Below, piece by piece: positions 12,996-23,499 of a stretch of 64,000 bases of DNA (position 1 is the first letter of the stretch; each line of letters opens with the position of its first letter). The stretch spans positions 124,001 to 188,000 of the forward strand of contig NZ_JAIELN010000002.1 of the NCBI RefSeq assembly GCF_019753045.1, in the 5' to 3' direction. The notes under the pieces are model-generated. The model was not told where the DNA came from. It did no database searches and saw only the letters and a program-made list of their open reading frames with translations. A program made the position numbers and the translations under genes. The DNA comes from Hyphomicrobium sp. (lineage in GTDB: Bacteria > Pseudomonadota > Alphaproteobacteria > Rhizobiales > Hyphomicrobiaceae).

Positions 12996-14717
12996 ATGGT
13001 CAGGATGAAAAGTAGCCACGCGCGTGCGGCGGCCCTGACGGCGTTGCTTGCATTTTCTGCATTGCCCGCATCCGCCCAGGAAATCGAACACCACAAGACC
13101 GAGAAGGCAAAACCAGCGGCACCTGCTCCAACCGTCACTCAGGAAATGCTGACGAATGCCGGAAGCGACGCAAAACAGTTCCTGCATACGAACGCCAATT
13201 ACGAGCAGACCCGCTTCTATCCGGGCAAACAGATCAATGCCTCGAACGTCTCGAAGCTTCGCCCGGCATGGATCTTCCAGATGGACGTGAGAGAGTCGCT
13301 CGAGACATCGCCGATCATCGTCGGCGAAGTCATGTACGTCACGACGTCGTTCGATCACGTCTATGCGCTCAATGCCAAGACTGGCGAGGAATACTGGCAC
13401 TACAAGCACAAGATGGGCCCGATCACGACGTACTGCTGCGGCCCAAACAATCGCGGCGTCGCGGTGCTTGGCGACAAAGTCTATTTCGCAACGCTCGACG
13501 CCAAGCTCGTTGCCCTCGATGCAAAAACCGGCAGCCTCGTCTGGGAGACGGAGATCGCGGATCCGGAATTGGGCTACAGCGAAACAATGGCGCCATCGGC
13601 CGTCAACGGCAAGATCTTGATCGGCACGAACGGCGGTGAATACGGTATCCGCGGCTTTTTCCGCGCGTATGACGCCAACACCGGCAAGCTGGTCTGGAAT
13701 TTCGATACGGTCCCGGAAGATTCGGTTGGCGTTTGGGCGACAAAGGATGCGAGCGGCCACGATATGCATCGCGACATCGCGGCTGAAAAAGCGCAACTCG
13801 CAAAGACCGGCGATCCATACAAAACGCTCGGAGGCGGGGTCTGGCAGAATCCGGCTGTCGATCTCAAGTTGAACCGGATCTACTTTGTGGTCGGCAACCC
13901 GTCACCTGATCTCGACGGTTCGAAACGGCCTGGCGACAATCTCTATACGGACTCGCTTGTCGCGCTCGACCTCGATACCGGCAAATACGTTTGTCACTTC
14001 CAGTACATCCCCCACGACGTTTGGGATCTCGATTCTGTTAGTCCGCCCATTCTGATCGACGTCAAAGACAAGGATGGCAAAACCGTACCGGGCGTAGTCC
14101 ACGCCGGAAAGACGGGATACGTCTACGTCAACAAACGCGACGACTGCGGCATTATCCGAATCTCGGATGTGATGGTGGCTCAGGAGAACTTCTGGACACT
14201 TCCGACTCCCAAGGGTGCGCGGATGCTGCCCGGAGCAAACGGCGGCGTCGAATGGTCACCAATGGCGGTCAATCAGAGGCTCAATCTTACCTACGCCGTG
14301 AACCTTCACCAGCCGATGACGTATCAGGTCCAGACGAGTCCCTATCCGGAAGGGAAGCTCTGGCTCGGCGGTGCCTTCAAAGTGATCCCGGGTGAAGAGC
14401 AATTCGGCAATGTCTCGGCGGTTAACTACAACACCGGTAAGATCAAGTGGCAGGTGCAGACACCACAGCCGATGATGGGAGGCGTGCTCGCAACCGCTGG
14501 CGACCTCGTATTCACCGGCGAGGCGAATGGTTGGTTCCGCGCCTACGACGCCGAAAGCGGCAAGATCCTGTGGTCGTTCCAGTCCGGCGCCGGTGTCAAC
14601 GCTCCGCCGTCGGCATATGCGATCGACGGCAAGGAATACGTCGTCGTCGGCGCCGGCGGAAACACGCAGATCGATTTCAAGCGCGGCAACAATATTATCG
14701 CCTTCACGCTTGACTGA
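12996..14717 (+). CDS. PQQ-dependent alcohol dehydrogenase, lanthanide-type motif
   Basis: 573 residues from an ATG behind GAGGA, with a Sec signal peptide ending at ASAQE; a periplasmic quinoprotein with beta-propeller (W-motif) repeats such as [11 protein letters not shown] and [11 protein letters not shown]. Active-site features are the vicinal disulfide Cys147-Cys148, Glu215 in GGEYGIRGF, Asn301 in VGNPSPD, and the catalytic Asp344 in DVWDLDS. Two residues after that Asp is a second Asp (Asp346). XoxF, ExaF and PedH have an Asp at this position to bind lanthanides, whereas Ca-dependent MxaF has Ala. It is not a close XoxF or MxaF by eye; the substrate alcohol is unknown. The adjacent cytochrome c is the likely electron acceptor. 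Confidence 0.88.
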
Positions 14718-14807
14718 TCGAACGTGGATGGCTCGGAAGGACCGCATAGGATCCCTGCCGAGCATCCGTTCAAATGCATGACCAGACCGGTCAACCGGAG
14801 ATCAGAA

Positions 14808-15416
14808 ATGATGAGTGCGATGCGATCGGCCCAAATCGCGATTGCCGGCATCGTTGCGGCATTCCCGCTTGTTCCAACGGCAGTGTCAGCCGCGAGCGTC
14901 GAGGAAAACGCTCAGACCTGCGCGGGTTGTCACGGCGAGAACGGCGTCCCCCAAGCGAAAACCACGCCCATCATTTGGGGACAGAATGAGGGCTACCTCT
15001 ACATCCAGCTGCGCGACTTCAAGAGCGGCGCGCGGAAGAGCGATCAAATGTCTGCCGTCGTCGCAAGCCTCGAGAAGGCTGATTTCAAGGCTTTGGCCGC
15101 TCACTTCGCTGGCCTGAAGTGGCCAATCCTCGGCCAGCCGTCACCACCGAAGGATGCGGCGAAGGCGGCGCTGACAGTCATCGGCTCGGTTGGCTGCACC
15201 TCGTGCCATCTCGATCAATTTCAAGGTGACGGTACGACGGCGCGACTTGCCGGCCAGCAGTCCGAATATCTGTTCAATACCATGACTGCATTTCGCGACG
15301 GATCACGCGCCAATAATCCCGGCATGTCGGATCTCATGAAAGCAGTGCAGCCGTCCGACATCAAACCCCTCGCTGAGTATCTTGCGAGCCTTCAGGTCGT
15401 CGGCGGTCAACAGTGA
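14808..15416 (+). CDS. Dihaem c-type cytochrome
   Basis: 202 residues from the ATG at 14808 behind CCGGAG; an upstream in-frame extension to 14724 is rejected because the signal peptide begins here and ends at VSAAS. Two haem-binding CxxCH motifs are present (CAGCH and CTSCH), each followed by a Met-containing segment, as in cytochrome c4-type tandem domains. It follows the PQQ dehydrogenase by 90 bases on the same strand. The inferred role is to carry electrons from the dehydrogenase to the terminal oxidase. Confidence 0.88.
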   Translation: MMSAMRSAQIAIAGIVAAFPLVPTAVSAASVEENAQTCAGCHGENGVPQAKTTPIIWGQNEGYLYIQLRDFKSGARKSDQMSAVVASLEKADFKALAAHFAGLKWPILGQPSPPKDAAKAALTVIGSVGCTSCHLDQFQGDGTTARLAGQQSEYLFNTMTAFRDGSRANNPGMSDLMKAVQPSDIKPLAEYLASLQVVGGQQ

Positions 15417-16385: not shown

Positions 16386-16679
16386 TTAGCCCCGGAACCC
16401 CTTCGATTTCCACTGTTCGTATTGGACCCGCGCGAGCTTGTAGGCGTCCGGTATCGAAAGCGCCCAGACGAATAGCCCCAATGCGAATCGCCCGATTATC
16501 GACCTGTCCGGCGGGGCGATCTGCCAGGTGATGAGCGCCAGCAGCAGCGTAAACATCGCGAACATAAATCCGCGCTGCTGTTGGCCAATTGCGACGTGTC
16601 CCATGCCGGGGAGCACGATGGCGAGAGCGAGAACCAGATAGGGGTTCATCGGCTTGCGCTCGACTTGCAGTGCATTCAT
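16386..16679 (-). CDS. Small membrane protein, unknown
   Basis: 97 residues with two or three hydrophobic segments (LVLALAIVLPGMGHVAIG, FAMFTLLLALITWQIA, FALGLFVWALSIPDAY). The G-x-GH-x3-GQ..RG pattern after the first helix resembles small TM2-like membrane proteins. It starts inside the stop codon of the upstream gene (ATGA overlap at 16676-16679), so it is translationally coupled to it. Function unknown. Confidence 0.7.
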   Translation of the reverse strand: MNALQVERKPMNPYLVLALAIVLPGMGHVAIGQQQRGFMFAMFTLLLALITWQIAPPDRSIIGRFALGLFVWALSIPDAYKLARVQYEQWKSKGFRG

Positions 16680-17356
16680 GCGGCAGACTCCAGCTTGACG
16701 TTGAGAAGGAGGTACTCGATTTCGAGCACCGCCGCGATGATGTCCTCAAGCCCTTCAGGGTCGAGTTGCGCGCCTTCGAAGACGATTTGCCGGAGAATGA
16801 GATGGGCGCCGCGCTTGCCTTCCGCAAGCTGGCGCATGATGCGGACGCCGCGCGGGGTGACGGCGATTTCCTTGAAATGGGGGTCGCGAAGAAGGGTCGC
16901 CACGTAAGGCGCGATCCGATCGAGAACGTGACGGGCGCCCGGGCCATCGCCCCTGATAAGGCACACGTCCGGAAAGTTTTCAGGCGGCGCCAGCCGTTCG
17001 TTGAAGTGGTCGGTTAGCGAAAAATAGTCCGCGCCCGATTGTCGGACGAGGATTGCGACGCTCCCCTCGACTGGCAGTTTGCGCTTCAAGGTGACGTCGA
17101 GCCAAAGCTGCGGCAAGCGGCGAAACGTCAGTGTGTCGGGAACGAGCGAGACGCGGAACGAGCGTCCGCGAAATTTCCCTTCCATCTTCGGAAAGCCGCA
17201 AGGGTCGATTTCGACCTTCGGCGTTTCGAGAACGTTCAGGGAAGGATCGAGCATGGAATGACGGGCGGCTGCGGCCACTCGCGCCTCGCGGCGACCGAAC
17301 AGGACGAGAATTGAAACTGCCGCGGCCAACAGCAAAGCAGCGAGTTCAGGAGGCAT
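16676..17356 (-). CDS. Membrane-anchored hypothetical protein
   Basis: 226 residues: an N-terminal helix (PELAALLLAAAVSILVLFG), then a soluble domain of about 200 residues with no motif I recognise. The soluble part contains KVEIDPCGFPKMEG and HFKEIAVTPRGVRIMRQL and ends in a hydrophobic, acidic helix. It is the first gene of a two-gene unit with the small membrane protein that overlaps its stop. The conserved-looking composition argues for a real gene; no function is assigned. Confidence 0.7.
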   Translation of the reverse strand: MPPELAALLLAAAVSILVLFGRREARVAAAARHSMLDPSLNVLETPKVEIDPCGFPKMEGKFRGRSFRVSLVPDTLTFRRLPQLWLDVTLKRKLPVEGSVAILVRQSGADYFSLTDHFNERLAPPENFPDVCLIRGDGPGARHVLDRIAPYVATLLRDPHFKEIAVTPRGVRIMRQLAEGKRGAHLILRQIVFEGAQLDPEGLEDIIAAVLEIEYLLLNVKLESAA

Positions 17357-17371
17357 GAATGGTTCTCACTC

Positions 17372-17407
17372 GAAAAAGAGGTGGCGCATCGCGAAGATGC
17401 GCCACCT
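17372..17407 (-). terminator. Strong intrinsic terminator of the permease operon
   Basis: A perfect 12-bp stem (AGGTGGCGCATC at 17379-17390 with GATGCGCCACCT at 17396-17407, five-base loop) is followed on the minus strand by CTTTTTC. It lies 8 bases after the stop of the APC permease gene. Confidence 0.88.
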
Positions 17408-17414
17408 TGGGACC

Positions 17415-18800
17415 TCAGTAACCTACCGGCCGCGGCCAGTTCATCGTGAACTGGTCGCCGCGGCGAACGTACTTGTAGCGGTGGAAATGGAACCAGAGCG
17501 AAGCGACGATGAAGAACACCATCATCGCGACGAGCTGGGTGCCATACCCGAGGAACACTGCGAAGTACGTCGTGGAGCAGATAGCCAGTAGCACAAGAGC
17601 CGGCAGCGGATGGAACGGATGCACGTATCCGCGCTTGATCGAGTCAAGCGGCCACATCCGCCGGAAGAAGATCACCTGGATCGACATGTACGTGTATTCG
17701 AGCAGACCTGACAGGATCGAGAATGTGATCACCTGATCAAGCGGCGCGAAGTACGCGAAGATCAACGCCACAGGCACGAGGAACACGATCGCCCGGAATG
17801 GCGTCCTGTTCTTCGGATGCACGGCGCCGAACCAGGTCGGCAGGTACCGGTCGCGACCCATCGAGAACCATGCTCGCGATGCGTCGTTGATGCAGCCGTT
17901 AGCCGAAGCCAGCGTCGAGAACATCGTGCCGATGAAGAGCAGCACCATCAACGGCGTCGAGTTCGTCAGCCGTGCGGCATCGAATAGCGGCGTCGTTGCT
18001 TGGCCGAGGTATTCCCACGGCATCAAGCCTGAGCAGAGGTACCACGTCATCGTTGCGGCGATGAGCAGCGTCATAATGCCGGTCATCGTTCCGAGCGGCA
18101 GAGATCGTGCCGGTGACCGGACTTCTTCGGCCGCCTGACACGTTCCTTCGATACCCAGATAGTACCAGAGACCGAAGTGCAGTGATGCCAGGACGCCGAT
18201 CCAGCCATATGGGAGTCCGTTCAGGATTTCCTTATGGTTGAGCAACTCGGTGGACCACGGCTTCACACCCATGAACAGGATGACGACGGCGATGAACGCA
18301 ATGGCGGTGAGGATCAGGTTCACCGTCAAGGTCGCGTAGACGCCCCGGTAGTTGAGCCAGGCCAAAAACACGATAGTCAAGACGATGAACGGCTTGTCGT
18401 GAGCTTCCGCGAATCCGGCCATTTGTCCCACTGTTTGGACGAGATAGCCGAGCGTGATGGCATTCGCGGCTTCAAGCATCGTGTATGCGAACACGAGGTA
18501 GAGGCCGACGTTGAACGCCATCAACGGTCCGATGATGTGTTTCGACTGCGCATATTGACCGCCAGCGGCAGCGACGGTGGACGTCACTTCCGAGTCGATC
18601 ATGGCGACGCAGGTGTAAAGAAGGCCTGCAGCCCAGCAGGCGATAAGAGCGGCGATGGCGCCGCCCTTGCCGACGGCGAAGTTCCACCCCATGTACTCGC
18701 CGACGAGCACGATACCGACGCCTAGTGCCCACACATGCGCGGGGCCCAGCACGCGGAGAAGAGAAATTTTCTCTCCGTGAACAGCAGTTGTTTGAGTCAC
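17415..18800 (-). CDS. APC-superfamily permease, ethanolamine/amino-acid permease-like
   Basis: 461 residues with about 12 membrane helices. The N-terminal helix contains GPAHVWALGVGIVLVGEY, and later VAAAGGQYAQSKHI and GIEGTCQAAEEVRSPARSLP match the conserved loops of APC transporters of the ethanolamine permease group. It starts at a GTG inside the stop of the upstream small gene (GTGA overlap at 18797-18800) behind AAGGGGGAC, so translation is coupled. It is the last gene of a four-gene operon with three small membrane proteins, an unusual setting for an APC carrier, which normally acts alone. Substrate unknown; small amines would fit a methylotroph but that is speculation. Confidence 0.88.
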   Translation of the reverse strand: MTQTTAVHGEKISLLRVLGPAHVWALGVGIVLVGEYMGWNFAVGKGGAIAALIACWAAGLLYTCVAMIDSEVTSTVAAAGGQYAQSKHIIGPLMAFNVGLYLVFAYTMLEAANAITLGYLVQTVGQMAGFAEAHDKPFIVLTIVFLAWLNYRGVYATLTVNLILTAIAFIAVVILFMGVKPWSTELLNHKEILNGLPYGWIGVLASLHFGLWYYLGIEGTCQAAEEVRSPARSLPLGTMTGIMTLLIAATMTWYLCSGLMPWEYLGQATTPLFDAARLTNSTPLMVLLFIGTMFSTLASANGCINDASRAWFSMGRDRYLPTWFGAVHPKNRTPFRAIVFLVPVALIFAYFAPLDQVITFSILSGLLEYTYMSIQVIFFRRMWPLDSIKRGYVHPFHPLPALVLLAICSTTYFAVFLGYGTQLVAMMVFFIVASLWFHFHRYKYVRRGDQFTMNWPRPVGY

Positions 18801-18982
18801 TTATGTCCCCCTTGATGTGGTGGGTCGATGACGAGCGCATCATCGGTTTCGCCTTCCTTGGAGGAAGTCAGAAGGTCTTCACTGTATGCACGATTGGTCT
18901 TGATCGTATCGAAGAGCATGTAGAGACCAAGCAAGATCGACAGGGCCCAGGCCCCGTATTCGAGGAGTTGCCAATTATCCAT
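18797..18982 (-). CDS. Single-helix small membrane protein of the permease operon
   Basis: 61 residues: one membrane helix (GAWALSILLGLYMLFDTI) and a charged cytoplasmic-type tail (EDLLTSSKEGETDDALVI, ending HQGGHK). It overlaps the start of the APC permease by four bases and follows the 131-residue gene by nine bases. Tight packing suggests a subunit or chaperone of the permease. No family recognised. Confidence 0.75.
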   Translation of the reverse strand: MDNWQLLEYGAWALSILLGLYMLFDTIKTNRAYSEDLLTSSKEGETDDALVIDPPHQGGHK

Positions 18983-18991
18983 TTAGGAGAC

Positions 18992-19387
18992 TCACTTTTT
19001 GCCGAAACGTTCTTCGATGACTTCGATGTATTCTCTCTTCGAGAACGCAAACAGCAGCATGAAATAGCCGATCACGACGATTGCAGTGATGGCGAGTTCA
19101 AGCGGGCTGAAGCTGTAATCAAATCTTGACGTGATGAGCGGAGCAGCGGTGTCCGGATGAAAGCCGAGCTTTTCCCATTGTGCAGATTGCACTGCATTCT
19201 GGCCGAGTCCGGCCCACGTCGACTTGTCGGCAACCGTAACATCGACTTTGCCGCCGCCGGCGAGCTTCAGGTAGAGAGGAGTGAAGAGAGCGGCGAACAC
19301 GAGTACGAGTAGGAAGAGACTGTCGAAAAGCTGCCCGAAAGCAGATTGTTTTGGAGGTTCGTAATGAGGCTTTTCCACGGTTCCCAC
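18992..19387 (-). CDS. Two-helix membrane protein of the permease operon
   Basis: 131 residues. One helix near residues 24-44 (LFLLVLVFAALFTPLYL) and another near 98-116 (LAITAIVVIGYFMLLFAF) flank a soluble loop of about 50 residues, probably periplasmic, with KVDVTVADKSTWAGLGQNA. The C-terminus is charged (SKREYIEVIEERFGKK). It lies between the other two small genes with gaps of 3 and 9 bases. No family recognised; a partner of the permease is the best inference. Confidence 0.75.
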   Translation of the reverse strand: MGTVEKPHYEPPKQSAFGQLFDSLFLLVLVFAALFTPLYLKLAGGGKVDVTVADKSTWAGLGQNAVQSAQWEKLGFHPDTAAPLITSRFDYSFSPLELAITAIVVIGYFMLLFAFSKREYIEVIEERFGKK

Positions 19388-19390
19388 CTA

Positions 19391-19687
19391 TCAGCTGTAA
19401 GATTTTTTCTTCGCTAGATCGATGTAGTGCAGATCTAGCCCGTAGATTTCTTCACGCTCCTCACTGAGATGCGCGACCATCGCCAAGATGGCGGCGGTAT
19501 TGAATAGAAGGACGAGCCCGCCAAAGACTGCGAGCGTCCAAACAACCTGCGGGTCGCCCAGGTAGTCTTTCACTTCAACGAAGACGAAGGCGTAGAGCGC
19601 CCACAGAACGGCAACCGCAACCAGTGACCATGCGCGGTCACCGGAGAATTTGCCGGCGATGCGAGGATCGGTATTCAACTTTTGCAT
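19391..19687 (-). CDS. Two-helix membrane protein, first gene of the permease operon
   Basis: 98 residues from the ATG at 19687, which follows a near-perfect ribosome site (AAAGGAGGG); the upstream extension to 19726 is rejected. Two helices (WSLVAVAVLWALYAFVFV and VWTLAVFGGLVLLFNTAAIL) are joined by a short loop with KDYLGDPQ; the tail HYIDLAKKKSYS is basic. It begins the operon that ends with the APC permease. No family recognised. Confidence 0.78.
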   Translation of the reverse strand: MQKLNTDPRIAGKFSGDRAWSLVAVAVLWALYAFVFVEVKDYLGDPQVVWTLAVFGGLVLLFNTAAILAMVAHLSEEREEIYGLDLHYIDLAKKKSYS

Positions 19688-20049
19688 TTTCCCTCCTTTT
19701 AGCGTTGGGGCGCTTGTCGATCGCAATTTGCCGATCGAAGCATTGATGCGATCAATGCCGGGATCGGCTCGACGTCCGCTCGCCCCTTAGAGTGGGTTAC
19801 TTGCTGCGACATTTAGTGACGCAGGGAGGCGGCTCGTCGTCAACATTTTTTCGTATGACGAAACATGAATTCGATGATGCGGTGCGCAAAATCATGCTGC
19901 ACAGCAGCATGCATAATCAATAAAATCATGCACTTAGCGCGAGTGCACCGCAAACGCGCGACGTGAGTTTAAGCAACGTGACTTTTAATTGCTGGTCAGC
20001 ATGCCTCGCATTTGAGCTTTTTTATTCAAAGCTCTGAGGCCGCGGATAT
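19688..20049. promoter_or_regulatory. Gene-free region with two inverted repeats
   Basis: No gene is supported in this 362-base gap. It should hold the promoter of the permease operon (reading left). Two palindromes stand out: GCATTGAT-gcg-ATCAATGC at 19740-19758, about 50 bases before the first gene of that operon, and CATGCTG-N5-CAGCATG at 19893-19911. AAAATCATGC occurs twice (near 19888 and 19922). The first palindrome is well placed to be an operator. Confidence 0.45.
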
Positions 20050-22020
20050 TCATCGAAGAATGCGTGCGGCTAATGCTGTCGCAACGAGATGAGGTTTGAT
20101 CTTGCCAACCGACGTGGAGGTTCGGCCGGAAAAAATGAACCTCAGAAGATGCGCTTTCGACTGTGCGGAATTCTCGAACTCGAGACCGAATCCGTGCTCC
20201 GTCTTCCGTCGGATGCAGGCGTCGATCGAAACGTCCGCAAAGCGCACGCGAACGGGACTTCCGATACGTAAGGGCGGTTCTCCGACAAGATGGATGCCGC
20301 TGACTGAAACGTCCGAAGCGTAGAATTCGTACGAAACTCCGCCGGCGCTTATCGTCACCGGCACTCGAACATCGAACCGCTCGCCGTTGCGTCGCTGCTG
20401 CTGTTCGCTGCAAACGTAGCAGCAGAGAGTGAGGACGATGATATTGTACCAGCTCCAGAACAGCGCGATGGCGCTGGATTCAGCGAGCGGCCGAGATGGA
20501 TCGATAAGAAAGGCATTGGCAATTCCGATTGCGGTCAAGGCGAGCAAAACACCGAATATTCGAAGAAGCGGCCATTGAATGAATTGCTTGCTTCGATCGC
20601 CCCCCTTGGCGGTCACTTTGAACTTCTGACCCTTCGGTCTCAGAAGTCCGGATACGACGCCCTTCAAGACTTCGGTCGAGCACAGCATTTGATAGAGATC
20701 TGACATCAGCGGAATCACGCGCCCGTCGGTCAGCCATAGGAAAATACCAATTTGCGCGGCAAGAAACGGTGCGAGATACCAGATCGCATCGATGACGTTG
20801 GCGTGAACCGCTTCGATCCCGAGTAGCAGGTAGAGCGCCGGCACGATGACGCTGAGCACGCGAAATAGATGGGTCGCCGACCAGTGCAAGAACGTCTCGC
20901 AGAGCATAATGCGATCGACGAAAGGAAGCCCGTTCCCGATTTTCAACGGACCGCTTGGGCCACGGCAGATCTGCACGAAGCCGAGGCACCAACGGGCGCG
21001 CTGACCGGTGTACTCCGCAAGCCCTTCTGGCGCGAGACCGAGCGAAAGCACTTCGTTCAAATAGACCGTGCCGAAACCTTTCTCACGCAGGCGCAGCGAC
21101 ACGAGATAATCTTCGGTCACGGAATCGGTCGGGAAACCGCCAATGCTTTGCAGCGCGTCGAACCTGATGATCGATGACGTTCCGCAGCAGAATGCGGCAC
21201 CCCAGGCGTCCTTCGACGCCATGACGATATCGAAGAAGAAGCGTTGCTCGTCCGGCCACACGCGGGTCAATGCCAGATTGCTTTGGATGGGATCTGGATT
21301 GAAGAAGTGCTGCGGCGTCTGCACGACACCCACGGTGGAGTCGAGCGCGAGAGACAGCCCCCGTGTAAGAAATTCGGGGAGCGGCACGAAATCGGCATCA
21401 AGGATCGAGATGAAATCCGGTTTCTCGTCGAGCGCGGCAAGCTTCTTCAATGCCGCGTTGATGTTGCCGGCCTTCGCGTGCGCGTTGTCGTTCCGCGTCA
21501 GATAACCGACGTTATGGCGCTCACAAAGCGCCTGTAGCCACGGCCTGCGCCCGTCGTCGCAAACCCACACCCGGAAGTTCGGATAGTTGATCGCCAGCGT
21601 TCCGATGATCGTGCGCTCGAGAATGTTCTCGTCTTCGTTATAGGTGCAGATGAGAACGTCGACTTTCGGCAGCTTCGGCAGGGCGAGCAACTTCGGAACG
21701 TTCCGGTTGGCTTCTGCGGTGCGGTTGCGCGTGCGTGTCAGGAAGATCTGCGATGCCGTGGCGCCGACCATGGTGATGGCTTCGACGGCCGTGAAGAGGA
21801 AGCCGACCATGAAGTCGACCGGATTGCTCACGGAAGGGATGGTGTTGAACATCCGCCACGTCATGTACCGCCAGCCGAGGCCGACGCAGATGACGATGGC
21901 GACAGTTCTGACTACCGTATTGTTTCGGTTGACCCACGGAAGTATCGCCGCCGCAAGCAAGCCGATGATCAATGCCGGCATCAACGCATCGAGATAGCTC
22001 ATTCCTGAAGCGGACGTCAT
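20050..22020 (-). CDS. Processive polysaccharide synthase with PilZ domain (BcsA/BgsA-like)
   Basis: 656 residues. After N-terminal helices comes a GT2 domain with the processive-synthase signature: DDG (155-157), DAD (208-210), TED (302-304) and QRARW (340-344). Helices follow, then a C-terminal PilZ domain with both c-di-GMP motifs intact: RxxxR (Arg544, Arg548) and DxSxxG (Asp570, Ser572, Gly575). The catalytic part resembles cellulose synthase. The partner gene is HlyD-like and there is no bcsB, bcsZ or bcsC, which instead recalls the rhizobial mixed-linkage beta-glucan BgsB-BgsA pair or alginate Alg8/Alg44. The product is probably a c-di-GMP-activated linear glycan; which one is unresolved. 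It follows its partner by 12 bases. Confidence 0.85.
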   Translation of the reverse strand: MTSASGMSYLDALMPALIIGLLAAAILPWVNRNNTVVRTVAIVICVGLGWRYMTWRMFNTIPSVSNPVDFMVGFLFTAVEAITMVGATASQIFLTRTRNRTAEANRNVPKLLALPKLPKVDVLICTYNEDENILERTIIGTLAINYPNFRVWVCDDGRRPWLQALCERHNVGYLTRNDNAHAKAGNINAALKKLAALDEKPDFISILDADFVPLPEFLTRGLSLALDSTVGVVQTPQHFFNPDPIQSNLALTRVWPDEQRFFFDIVMASKDAWGAAFCCGTSSIIRFDALQSIGGFPTDSVTEDYLVSLRLREKGFGTVYLNEVLSLGLAPEGLAEYTGQRARWCLGFVQICRGPSGPLKIGNGLPFVDRIMLCETFLHWSATHLFRVLSVIVPALYLLLGIEAVHANVIDAIWYLAPFLAAQIGIFLWLTDGRVIPLMSDLYQMLCSTEVLKGVVSGLLRPKGQKFKVTAKGGDRSKQFIQWPLLRIFGVLLALTAIGIANAFLIDPSRPLAESSAIALFWSWYNIIVLTLCCYVCSEQQQRRNGERFDVRVPVTISAGGVSYEFYASDVSVSGIHLVGEPPLRIGSPVRVRFADVSIDACIRRKTEHGFGLEFENSAQSKAHLLRFIFSGRTSTSVGKIKPHLVATALAARILR

Positions 22021-22032
22021 GCCGGCGCCCGC

Positions 22033-23499
22033 TCAATGCATGCCGGAGAAGGCAGCCGCGCTGGCGGTGTCGAATTGCACGAGCCCCGACCGCCCGATGC
22101 GGCAGTCGGCGTGCTTCAGGAGATCCGGGAAGCGCAAGGTGACGTGATAGGGTTCGCGACTGAGCGCATTTTGCTGGATCGCGCTGTTGGATGCGACGGC
22201 TGCGAGACCGTTCAAGCTGACGAGCGTGCCCGTCAGCTCTTCTCCCCCGTCTCGCGGTTTGAATGTCGCCGTCTGTCCGACAGCCAGTCTTTGATAGGCG
22301 GTTTCGCTGACGCTCGCCGTCACCAGCGCGCTTCCGCAATCGAGAAGCTTCACGAGATCCTGACCGGCATTGACGTGTTCGCCCGGCGCAGTCAGCATTT
22401 CCCACACGCGCCCGTTTACGGTTGAGCGGATCTCGACTTTCGCAAGTTCGTCGCGGCGCCCTTGTTCCTTGACGAGTTCCGCGTCGAGGCTTTCGAGCTC
22501 GGCCCTGGTGCCGACGAGACGCGCCTGCACGTCGGACAGCTCGAGCGAAACTTCCATCTTCCGCTGTGCGGATTGAGGCGTATCGTTATAGCTGTCGCCG
22601 ACGTACGTTCCCTTCTTCGCGGCTTCGAGTTCGACGAGCATGCCCTTGAGGCGCTCGGCGTGTCCTTTGACCGTCTGCTCCGCGACACGGGCGTCGCCGG
22701 CGGCCTTATCGAGAAATGCCTGGCTCACGGCGTCTGTCTTGCGCAAGGTTTCGGCTCTCTTCAGCGCATCCGACGCAACGGAATGCTGCGCCTCTGCGGC
22801 CGCCATATCCGTGTCCGCCTGGCGTAACCGTTGCTCGAGCTGTTCGATGCGCCCGATGCGAAAGCGCTCCTGCTGCAGCGAGAGTTCATTGAGGCTGGCA
22901 AGGAGAAGCTGCTTCTTTCCTTCGAGCGCGCCGATCGTCGTTCTGAGTTGGTTGCGATCTCTCATCAGGTTCGCAAGGTGCGAGGAGTCGGCCCGCGGAT
23001 TGCGGACGACGAGAATGTTTTGATCGACACGGAACATGCTGCCGACATCGGTGTCGGCGTCCGCCATGCTGACCTCGCCCTCGATCGGGGCCCTGAGCGT
23101 TATCACCCGTGCATTGACGACCGCTTCGGTGCTTGTCGTTGCGAGTAAGCGCTGAACTGGCAGCCAGCCAAGTCCCAACGCGAGAGCGATCGCCACGAGA
23201 GATTTGATGATTGTCGCGGGCCGGAAATTGGCTGGCAACGAAACGGTTCTGGCGGCCTTCGCGGGCTTCTCGGCGGGTTCGGCAACCGGCGTGACGCTGG
23301 GTTCCGGATGTTCGCTCGGGCTGCCGTTCCGCCAGTTTTTTGCGACGGATTCGAGATAGGCGATTTGGACGTCCGTCGTGAACTCGCTCTCCCGCGCCGC
23401 TTCGAGTTCAGCAACGTCCGGCGACTCGGGCAACGCTGACACGAGCAGCCTTGGAGACCGGGAGCTAACTGCTTTGCCAGGGAAGGGATTCGACGACAT
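22033..23499 (-). CDS. HlyD/membrane-fusion partner of the polysaccharide synthase
   Basis: 488 residues. A cytoplasmic N-terminus of about 110 residues, one helix (SLVAIALALGLGWLPVQ) and a periplasmic adaptor part follow. That part has a lipoyl-like half (APIEGEVSMADADTDVGSMF), a long coiled-coil hairpin rich in Glu, Arg, Leu and Ala, and the second half near VNGRVWEMLTAPGEHVNAGQ. It is the first gene of the pair with the PilZ synthase. Its role is inferred to be export of the nascent glycan across the periplasm, like BgsB or the adaptor part of Alg44. It diverges from the iron-receptor region. Confidence 0.85.
   Translation of the reverse strand: MSSNPFPGKAVSSRSPRLLVSALPESPDVAELEAARESEFTTDVQIAYLESVAKNWRNGSPSEHPEPSVTPVAEPAEKPAKAARTVSLPANFRPATIIKSLVAIALALGLGWLPVQRLLATTSTEAVVNARVITLRAPIEGEVSMADADTDVGSMFRVDQNILVVRNPRADSSHLANLMRDRNQLRTTIGALEGKKQLLLASLNELSLQQERFRIGRIEQLEQRLRQADTDMAAAEAQHSVASDALKRAETLRKTDAVSQAFLDKAAGDARVAEQTVKGHAERLKGMLVELEAAKKGTYVGDSYNDTPQSAQRKMEVSLELSDVQARLVGTRAELESLDAELVKEQGRRDELAKVEIRSTVNGRVWEMLTAPGEHVNAGQDLVKLLDCGSALVTASVSETAYQRLAVGQTATFKPRDGGEELTGTLVSLNGLAAVASNSAIQQNALSREPYHVTLRFPDLLKHADCRIGRSGLVQFDTASAAAFSGMH

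What the first reader, a model, noticed from the sequence alone, without database searches (positions are those of the whole stretch)
17415..19687. APC permease encoded with three small membrane proteins in one coupled operon
APC-superfamily carriers normally work as single polypeptides. Here a 461-residue permease is preceded by three small membrane proteins (98, 131 and 61 residues; two, two and one helices). The gaps are 3 and 9 bases with a GTGA overlap, and one strong terminator ends the unit. The tight coupling suggests fixed stoichiometry, so the small proteins may be accessory subunits of a multi-component amine or amino-acid transporter. I do not recognise the small families.
Basis: partly seen in the sequence, partly recalled or inferred. 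Interest (0 to 1): 0.62.

Follow-up and report, generated by a model that had tools for sequence, protein, structure and literature searches.

The report
Methylamine permease with small membrane subunits
A bacterial gene cassette seems to build a methylamine importer from one carrier protein plus three tiny membrane proteins, with two further helper-like proteins, and the set stays together across many bacteria, which points to an unstudied multi-part transporter.

Summary
The four genes are real and lie as described, but the conserved unit has six genes: S98, S131, S61, the APC permease, then m226 and m97 behind a terminator-like hairpin. All six, same order and strand, occur in 75 of 79 named-genome loci, 31 of 33 further loci and 12 of 12 plasmid records; the six shortfalls lie at contig or fetched-stretch ends. 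Of 398 genomes across the phylum the same 14 carry S131 and the permease. The permease fails the models for TmoP and ethanolamine permease. N-methylglutamate pathway genes adjoin it in 39 of 79 loci, methylamine dehydrogenase genes in others. All 29 permease-bearing genomes of 100 carry gmaS, as do 23 of the other 71. Best reading: a methylamine importer, an APC carrier with dedicated small membrane subunits. Substrate and physical complex are inferred, not shown. m226 has a TtfA/CCDC47-like predicted fold, suggesting a carrier cofactor or assembly factor.

The parts
19391..19687 (-). S98: 98-aa protein, two membrane segments, conserved tail (IYGLDLHYID), cytosolic by charge rule; unnamed family
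   Evidence: alignment of 18; only scattered weak Pfam matches; present also in the split mau-type copies
18992..19387 (-). S131: 131-aa protein, membrane helix 16-39, small domain about 47-89 (best-modelled part), membrane helix 95-128; unnamed family
   Evidence: alignment of 22; AF2 pLDDT 80.7, pTM 0.44; no PDB fold match below E 8.6
18797..18982 (-). S61: 61-aa protein, one membrane segment, conserved tail (SEDLLTSS[KR]EGE), cytosolic by charge rule; GTGA overlap with the permease
   Evidence: (4-base overlap in 22 of 27 loci with both genes; starts chosen by script); not found in the two mau-type copies
17415..18800 (-). APC-superfamily permease, proposed methylamine importer; helix 1 reads VLVGEYMGWN
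   Evidence: PF00324, PF13520 above cut-off; mean column identity 84%
17379..17407 (-). terminator-like hairpin (12 pairs, then CTTTTT) between permease and m226; perhaps an attenuator rather than the end of the unit
16676..17356 (-). m226: N-terminal membrane helix plus soluble domain with a TtfA/CCDC47-like predicted fold; possible carrier cofactor or assembly factor
   Evidence: pLDDT 86.5, pTM 0.84; no Pfam match for this member at E<=1; one of 15 members hits YbjN at 0.079
16386..16679 (-). m97: 97-aa protein with three membrane segments, 4-base overlap with m226; weakly DUF6677-like (below cut-off)
   Evidence: 4-base overlap in 21 of 26 loci; DUF6677 in 11 of 15 members, best E 0.0016
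19849..19863 (.). TTTCGTATGACGAAA palindrome upstream of S98: exact form of TTTCGTN3ACGAAA in 6 of 8 aligned same-genus loci, one mismatch in the other 2; only exact site in the genome: candidate operator
   Evidence: (8 of 25 upstream regions aligned)

Best explanation
The locus encodes a dedicated monomethylamine (methylammonium) importer of the APC superfamily that works as a multi-part membrane complex. The 461-residue carrier brings the amine across the inner membrane, to be used by the cytoplasmic N-methylglutamate pathway (GmaS/Mgs/Mgd) or as a nitrogen source or signal. S98 and S131 are core accessory subunits that pack on the carrier, S61 is a single-helix subunit made by translational coupling to it, and m226 with m97, perhaps made at lower level behind the hairpin, assist as a TtfA/CCDC47-like membrane-anchored cofactor or assembly factor. 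Shown here: gene set, conservation, linkage, co-occurrence, predicted fold of m226. Inferred: substrate, direction, physical complex, roles of each small protein, attenuation.
For: (1) Fixed set: six genes, same order and strand, in 75 of 79 named-genome loci, 31 of 33 further loci, 25 of 33 relatives' loci, 12 of 12 plasmid records; S131 and permease in the same 14 of 398 phylum genomes. (2) Methylamine context: NMG-pathway genes within the 7-kb flanks in 39 of 79 loci, mau genes in 2 more; NMG genes in 16 of 33 further 19-kb (or shorter) stretches; islands on P. aminophilus pAMI6 and S. meliloti pSymB; two mau clusters with MauA and MauB by Pfam. (3) In the same 29 genomes GmaS lies within 15 kb of 12 of 33 permease copies against 3 of 64 other APC genes (Fisher p about 1e-4). 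(4) All 29 permease-bearing genomes of 100 (own included) carry GmaS at 58% identity or more; 23 of the other 71 do. The own genome has mgdABCD-regulator-mgsABC-gmaS on another contig. (5) Helix 1: an acidic residue follows VLVG in 124 of 125 segments matching the motif (Glu in 123), as in one annotated ethanolamine permease. In the profile alignment Val33-Gly34 stand opposite Thr43-Gly44 of GkApcT, which contact the substrate carboxylate (PMC5803215, passages), and Glu35 opposite the next residue: consistent with, not proof of, an amine lacking a carboxylate. (6) S98 and S131 are kept in two split mau-type copies in which S61, m226 and m97 were not found.
Against: 38 of 79 loci have no NMG or mau gene within their flanks, and the own GmaS is on another contig. 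GmaS occurs without a detected permease in 23 of 71 genomes (one of them, G004, has the small genes at a contig end), so the pathway does not need it. One S131-bearing genome, G062, lacks a close GmaS, though its cassette is cut by a contig end. Methylamine dehydrogenase is periplasmic (PMC5023228, passage), so mau-linked copies need no import for oxidation; the two mau-type copies have Asn and Asp in place of the Glu. The helix-1 alignment has a one-residue gap, so the Glu is not simply in the place of Thr43. An Amt-type carrier sits near the cassette in 2 of 36 relatives' rows and in none of 79 and is called the methylamine transporter in Pseudomonas C5pp (PMC8292978, passage). No transport or interaction data. 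The loci sets overlap (133 distinct permease segments in 152) and are related, so counts are not independent.
Confidence: 0.48

Rival explanations
1. Same complex, different amine: the carrier imports another small amine or a pathway product (dimethylamine, ethanolamine, trimethylamine, or gamma-glutamylmethylamide/N-methylglutamate), or exports surplus methylamine/ammonium.
For: The nearest curated model is ethanolamine permease TIGR00908 (176.4 bits, cut-off 381.75). tmoP, tmm or dmm-like genes stand near the cassette in loci without NMG genes nearby (L098, L123, L128; L217-L219, L226, L231, L234, L235; the dmm names were given from their place in L153, not tested).
Against: What NMG- and mau-linked copies share is methylamine itself: two unrelated oxidation routes. 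TMAO has its own permease, TmoP, in the same islands. Helix 1 speaks weakly against an amino acid.
Confidence: 0.24
2. The permease works alone; the small proteins are co-expressed but independent membrane proteins (envelope or regulatory factors needed under methylamine growth).
For: No fold or family match ties the small proteins to a carrier beyond isolated weak hits. The closest solved relative, GkApcT, purified without its chance partner MgtS had a similar initial rate but took up less in all (PMC5803215, passages).
Against: Identical presence in the phylum sample, start-stop overlap of S61 with the permease in 22 of 27 loci, and retention of S98 and S131 when the cassette is split.
Confidence: 0.2
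3. A transceptor: the carrier with its small partners senses methylamine at the membrane and signals, rather than serving bulk import.
For: In both mau-type copies a response regulator and a histidine kinase gene follow the permease directly; oxidation there is periplasmic; the conserved charged tails of S61, S98 and S131 face the cytosol by charge rule.
Against: In the six-gene form the recurrent regulator gene nearby is a soluble HTH-cupin protein (25 of 79 loci; family of one member); kinases were not searched for there.
Confidence: 0.08

Closest known systems
Ethanolamine permease (Eat, TIGR00908, APC superfamily)
   Same: Nearest curated model; helix 1 with a GEYFGW motif in the one annotated Eat compared
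   Different: 176.4 bits of the 381.75 needed; 30% identity to that Eat; HMMs of the five partner proteins found nothing in its 7.3-kb stretch
TmoP, TMAO permease of methylated-amine islands (NF053774)
   Same: APC protein in the same islands
   Different: Separate family: the neighbouring 601-aa APC meets NF053774 (834.8 of 690), P0001 does not match it at E<=1 and aligns to that APC only at E 0.095
GkApcT with MgtS (5OQT/6F34)
   Same: APC carrier with a bound single-helix protein; best PDB sequence match
   Different: MgtS comes from the E. coli expression host; here the partners are encoded with the carrier and conserved
Carriers with small membrane subunits: ActP-YjcH, SSS with DUF4212, TRAP DctQ (recalled, not tested)
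   Same: Secondary carrier with small dedicated membrane proteins
   Different: Other carrier superfamilies; no member of the S98 or S131 alignments matched those small families at E<=0.1, one S131 member hit TctB at 0.068 and one BCCT at 0.00025; S61 was scanned for one member only
Amt/MEP methylammonium transporters
   Same: Also linked to NMG genes (gmaS-mgsABC-amt, PMC8292978 passage; L160)
   Different: Different Pfam family (PF00909) from the permease (PF00324/PF13520)
TtfA (MmpL3 partner, 6T84) and CCDC47 (multipass translocon)
   Same: m226: N-terminal membrane helix plus domain of similar fold (Z 11.4, rmsd 3.4, 152 aligned to 6t84; Z 11.7, rmsd 4.3, 203 aligned to 7tm3_4); TtfA is an essential partner of a transporter (PMC6593404, passages)
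   Different: 8-12% identity, no sequence match; that chains 7tm3_4, 6w6l_7 and 9i78_4 are CCDC47 is recalled; PMC7505659 passages say that 6W6L's translocon holds CCDC47 with a large globular cytosolic domain

Membership tests
APC superfamily (PF00324 / PF13520) | whole-protein score above the Pfam gathering score | tested here: met
   100.1 of 24.6 and 94.1 of 27
Ethanolamine permease TIGR00908 | equivalog score 381.75 | tested here: not met
   176.4 bits
TmoP NF053774 | equivalog score 690 | tested here: not met
   no match at E<=1 for P0001, while the neighbouring APC on pAMI6 scores 834.8
Multi-subunit secondary carrier | accessory genes inherited with the carrier | tested here: met
   same 14 of 398 genomes
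Multi-subunit secondary carrier | accessory proteins bound to the carrier and needed for transport | not testable with these tools
   needs co-purification and deletions
Methylamine-utilisation gene set (NMG pathway) | co-occurrence and linkage with gmaS | tested here: met
   29 of 29 permease genomes have GmaS; 12 of 33 copies within 15 kb against 3 of 64 control APCs; not linked in the window's own genome
Methylamine importer | transport of methylamine | not testable with these tools
   inferred from context and, weakly, helix 1
Amt/MEP ammonium transporter | PF00909 match | tested here: not met
   not among Pfam matches of P0001 at E<=1
TtfA / CCDC47-like (m226) | shared fold with N-terminal membrane anchor | tested here: met
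   Foldseek E 6.6e-4 to 6t84; Z 10.1-11.7 to four chains, next row Z 7.4; predicted model, so similarity of fold only
TtfA / CCDC47-like (m226) | sequence homology | tested here: inconclusive
   profile found no PDB sequence at E<=10

The most novel reading that the evidence does not exclude
The last two genes encode a bacterial counterpart of the eukaryotic PAT intramembrane chaperone: m226, a single-helix protein with a CCDC47/TtfA-like cytosolic domain, and m97, a protein of 97 residues with three membrane segments, translationally coupled to it (Asterix, the CCDC47 partner, is recalled to be a three-helix protein of about 106 residues), devoted to assembling one multi-subunit APC carrier. 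The fold of m97 was not tested.
Probability: 0.1. Interest if true: 0.88.

Novelty: new variant of a known kind. Interest (0 to 1): 0.6.

Why it matters
To my knowledge (recall, plus the ten searches listed) the importer of methylamine in Gram-negative methylotrophs is poorly defined, though the enzymes of both oxidation routes are known. A conserved gene set makes the question directly testable by deletion. It would also be an APC carrier with encoded small partners that are inherited as strictly as the carrier, and it offers bacterial proteins (m226/m97) for studying TtfA/CCDC47-like factors. In the six records seen with gene tables (pAMI6, pAA01 and four others) the five partner genes are annotated only as hypothetical protein, or not at all.

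Tried and rejected
S61-permease fusion: in S. meliloti Ak57 the two share one open frame, but an alignment of eight records shows that this strain differs from its close relatives by one extra base at the junction; not used as evidence.

TmoP identity: excluded by NCBIfam and BLASTP.

Early reading of S131 paralogs as an electron-transfer part (L052, L055): dropped when wider fetches showed a permease and S98 in the same mau clusters.

Neighbour clusters were used only as leads: the ORF picker kept some antisense frames; counts rest.

Helix 1: my first wording put Glu35 in the place of Thr43/Gly44 of GkApcT; on re-reading, the alignment puts Val33-Gly34 there, with a one-residue gap, and Glu35 next to them. 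I mended this and lowered the main confidence from 0.50 to 0.48 and raised the other-amine rival from 0.22 to 0.24.

Promoter scan: chance level. No sigma-54-like site by one strict pattern in 25 upstream regions. The palindrome was not found upstream of the own NMG genes (one two-mismatch site, 0.93 expected).

No PDB sequence match for S131, S61, m226, and only chance-level ones for S98 and m97; no PDB fold match for S131 (one row, E 8.6). One of 22 S131 members hit BCCT at E 0.00025; I take it for a chance match of membrane helices, not tested.

Literature: ten searches; no listing or passage seen describes this cassette. Read were abstracts, passages or single sections only. The abstract of PMC5023235 says that amino-acid permeases respond to methylamine in Methyloversatilis universalis; its Table 3 names none, so I could not tie them to this cassette. 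Zhu 2014 and the 7TM3 paper were not held.
Full report
What is there. The window lies in a Hyphomicrobium: its same-genus group includes G001, whose contig (1,323,007 bases) equals in length that of H. facile DSM 1565. On the minus strand S98, S131, S61 and a 461-aa APC permease follow one another with gaps of 3 and 9 bases and a GTGA overlap. Hydropathy gives 2, 2 and 1 membrane segments. All six genes show dN/dS of 0.40 or less against four relatives.

The unit is six genes. tblastn and own HMMs show that two more genes, m226 and m97, follow. All six, in one order and on one strand, are present in 25 of 33 relatives' loci, 75 of 79 named-genome loci, 31 of 33 further loci and 12 of 12 plasmid records. 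The named-genome scan kept the best 80 of 474 relatives, so it favours close ones. The sets overlap: 152 permease segments, 133 distinct; they must not be added. Of the 14 incomplete loci, 11 end at a contig or fetched-stretch end (L051 and L246 are one contig). The other three are real: a second copy in G012 without m226/m97 (L040), and two mau-linked copies (L052/L158, L055/L157). In those two, S98 lies beside the permease, S131 at the far end of the mau genes, and S61, m226 and m97 were not found. Two permease copies on short contigs, G048:C44 and G013:C129, were not fetched as such. Outer flanks differ between lineages. The cassette also occurs in betaproteobacteria: Paraburkholderia caribensis and a MAG labelled Rhodocyclaceae, L126.

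Co-inheritance. In 398 genomes spread over the phylum S131 occurs in 14 and the permease (E<=1e-60) in 14, the same 14. In 100 genomes (own and relatives) the permease has a clean identity gap: 33 copies at 65-100%, everything else at 31% or less. S131 is in 31 of 100, permease in 29; the two extra, G004 and G062, are cut by contig ends. In an order sample S131 occurs in 44 of 297 genomes, 11 of 122 genera. In a class sample of 385 genomes S131 occurs in 6 (permease not searched there). Genomes of one genus are related, so these are not independent events.

Neighbours. P. aminophilus pAMI6 has the cassette divergent from a glutamine-amidotransferase/GXGXG/FMN-glutamate-synthase/glnT-type row (mgsABC-gmaS), with soxBDAG-type (mgd) genes and TmoP nearby (the methylamine role of such genes on pAMI6 is stated in PMC4543880, passages; I did not map old locus tags to new ones). 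S. meliloti pSymB has cassette, gmaS/mgs-type row, regulator and sox-type genes in a row by annotation. In the 79 loci, NMG genes lie within the 7-kb flanks in 39 and mauA/B in 2 more; in the 33 further loci NMG genes lie near 16, and tmoP or dmm-like genes alone near 7. In G019 and G089 the mau-linked copies are confirmed by methylamine dehydrogenase light- and heavy-chain matches. Control: in the 29 permease genomes, GmaS lies within 15 kb of 12 of 33 permease copies and of 3 of 64 other APC genes (p about 1e-4, coordinates); two of these three lie within 11 kb of the cassette itself. Co-occurrence with GmaS: 29 of 29 against 23 of 71, not corrected for kinship. In the window's own genome the NMG genes are complete but on another contig. 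MADH is periplasmic and the two oxidation routes are non-orthologous (PMC5023228, abstract and one passage); the common element of the two contexts is methylamine.

The carrier. It belongs to the APC superfamily by Pfam and fails the ethanolamine-permease and TmoP equivalog models. Nearest solved relative by sequence is GkApcT. In the profile alignment Val33-Gly34 stand opposite Thr43-Gly44 of GkApcT, which contact the carboxylate of the bound alanine (PMC5803215, passages), after a one-residue gap, and the conserved Glu35 follows. Glu follows VLVG in 123 of 125 motif-matching segments, Asn and Asp in the two mau-type copies; one annotated ethanolamine permease shares the Glu. So the Thr is lost and an acidic residue sits beside the carboxylate site: this fits an amine without a carboxylate, but it is a weak inference from alignment.

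The helpers. m226 (AF2 pLDDT 86.5, pTM 0.84) resembles TtfA and chains of the multipass translocon, above a gap to rows at Z 7.4 and below, among them type III secretion chaperones. TtfA has an N-terminal membrane helix and is an essential partner of the MmpL3 transporter (PMC6593404, passages). So a carrier cofactor or assembly factor is the likeliest role; that is inference from fold. Of 26 loci looked at between permease and m226, pAMI6 has a 1-base gap; of the 25 folded, 24 show a strong hairpin by eye and L049 none that is clear. I read it as attenuation, untested.

Regulation. A gene like the HTH-cupin regulator of L153 lies near the cassette in 25 of 79 loci (Pfam domains for one member) and in the own NMG cluster. 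A palindrome TTTCGTN3ACGAAA upstream of S98 is exact in 6 and one mismatch off in 2 of eight aligned loci and has one exact site in the genome.

Judgement. The linkage and co-occurrence are strong. That this is one transport system for a methylated amine I hold likely; monomethylamine as substrate about 0.62, physical subunits about 0.65, the full statement 0.48 (0.50 before the helix-1 alignment was re-read). No listing or passage seen in ten searches describes the cassette; subscription papers are largely outside the library.

Noticed in passing
window 19849-19863: TTTCGTATGACGAAA palindrome upstream of S98, kept in relatives (exact in 6 of 8 aligned), single exact site in the genome; its regulator is unknown.
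   Followed up: partly
L048 (G051), L068 (Hyphomicrobium sulfonivorans S1; same permease sequences as L048), L071 (Hyphomicrobium sp. D-2): The permease is duplicated in tandem behind one set of small genes, next to mau genes.
   Followed up: no
L157:14197-16277, L158:4428-6592: A response regulator and a histidine kinase gene directly follow the mau-linked permease (Pfam).
   Followed up: partly
L160:11189-12906: An AmtB (PF00909) followed by an ORF of 78 aa without Pfam match, right after the six-gene cassette and NMG genes.
   Followed up: partly
window 20050-23499: Cellulose-synthase-like glycosyltransferase with PilZ domain plus HlyD-like protein upstream, beside the cassette in only some of the relatives' loci.
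   Followed up: no
window 12996-15416: PQQ-dehydrogenase-like gene and a c-type cytochrome downstream on the other strand (Pfam).
   Followed up: no
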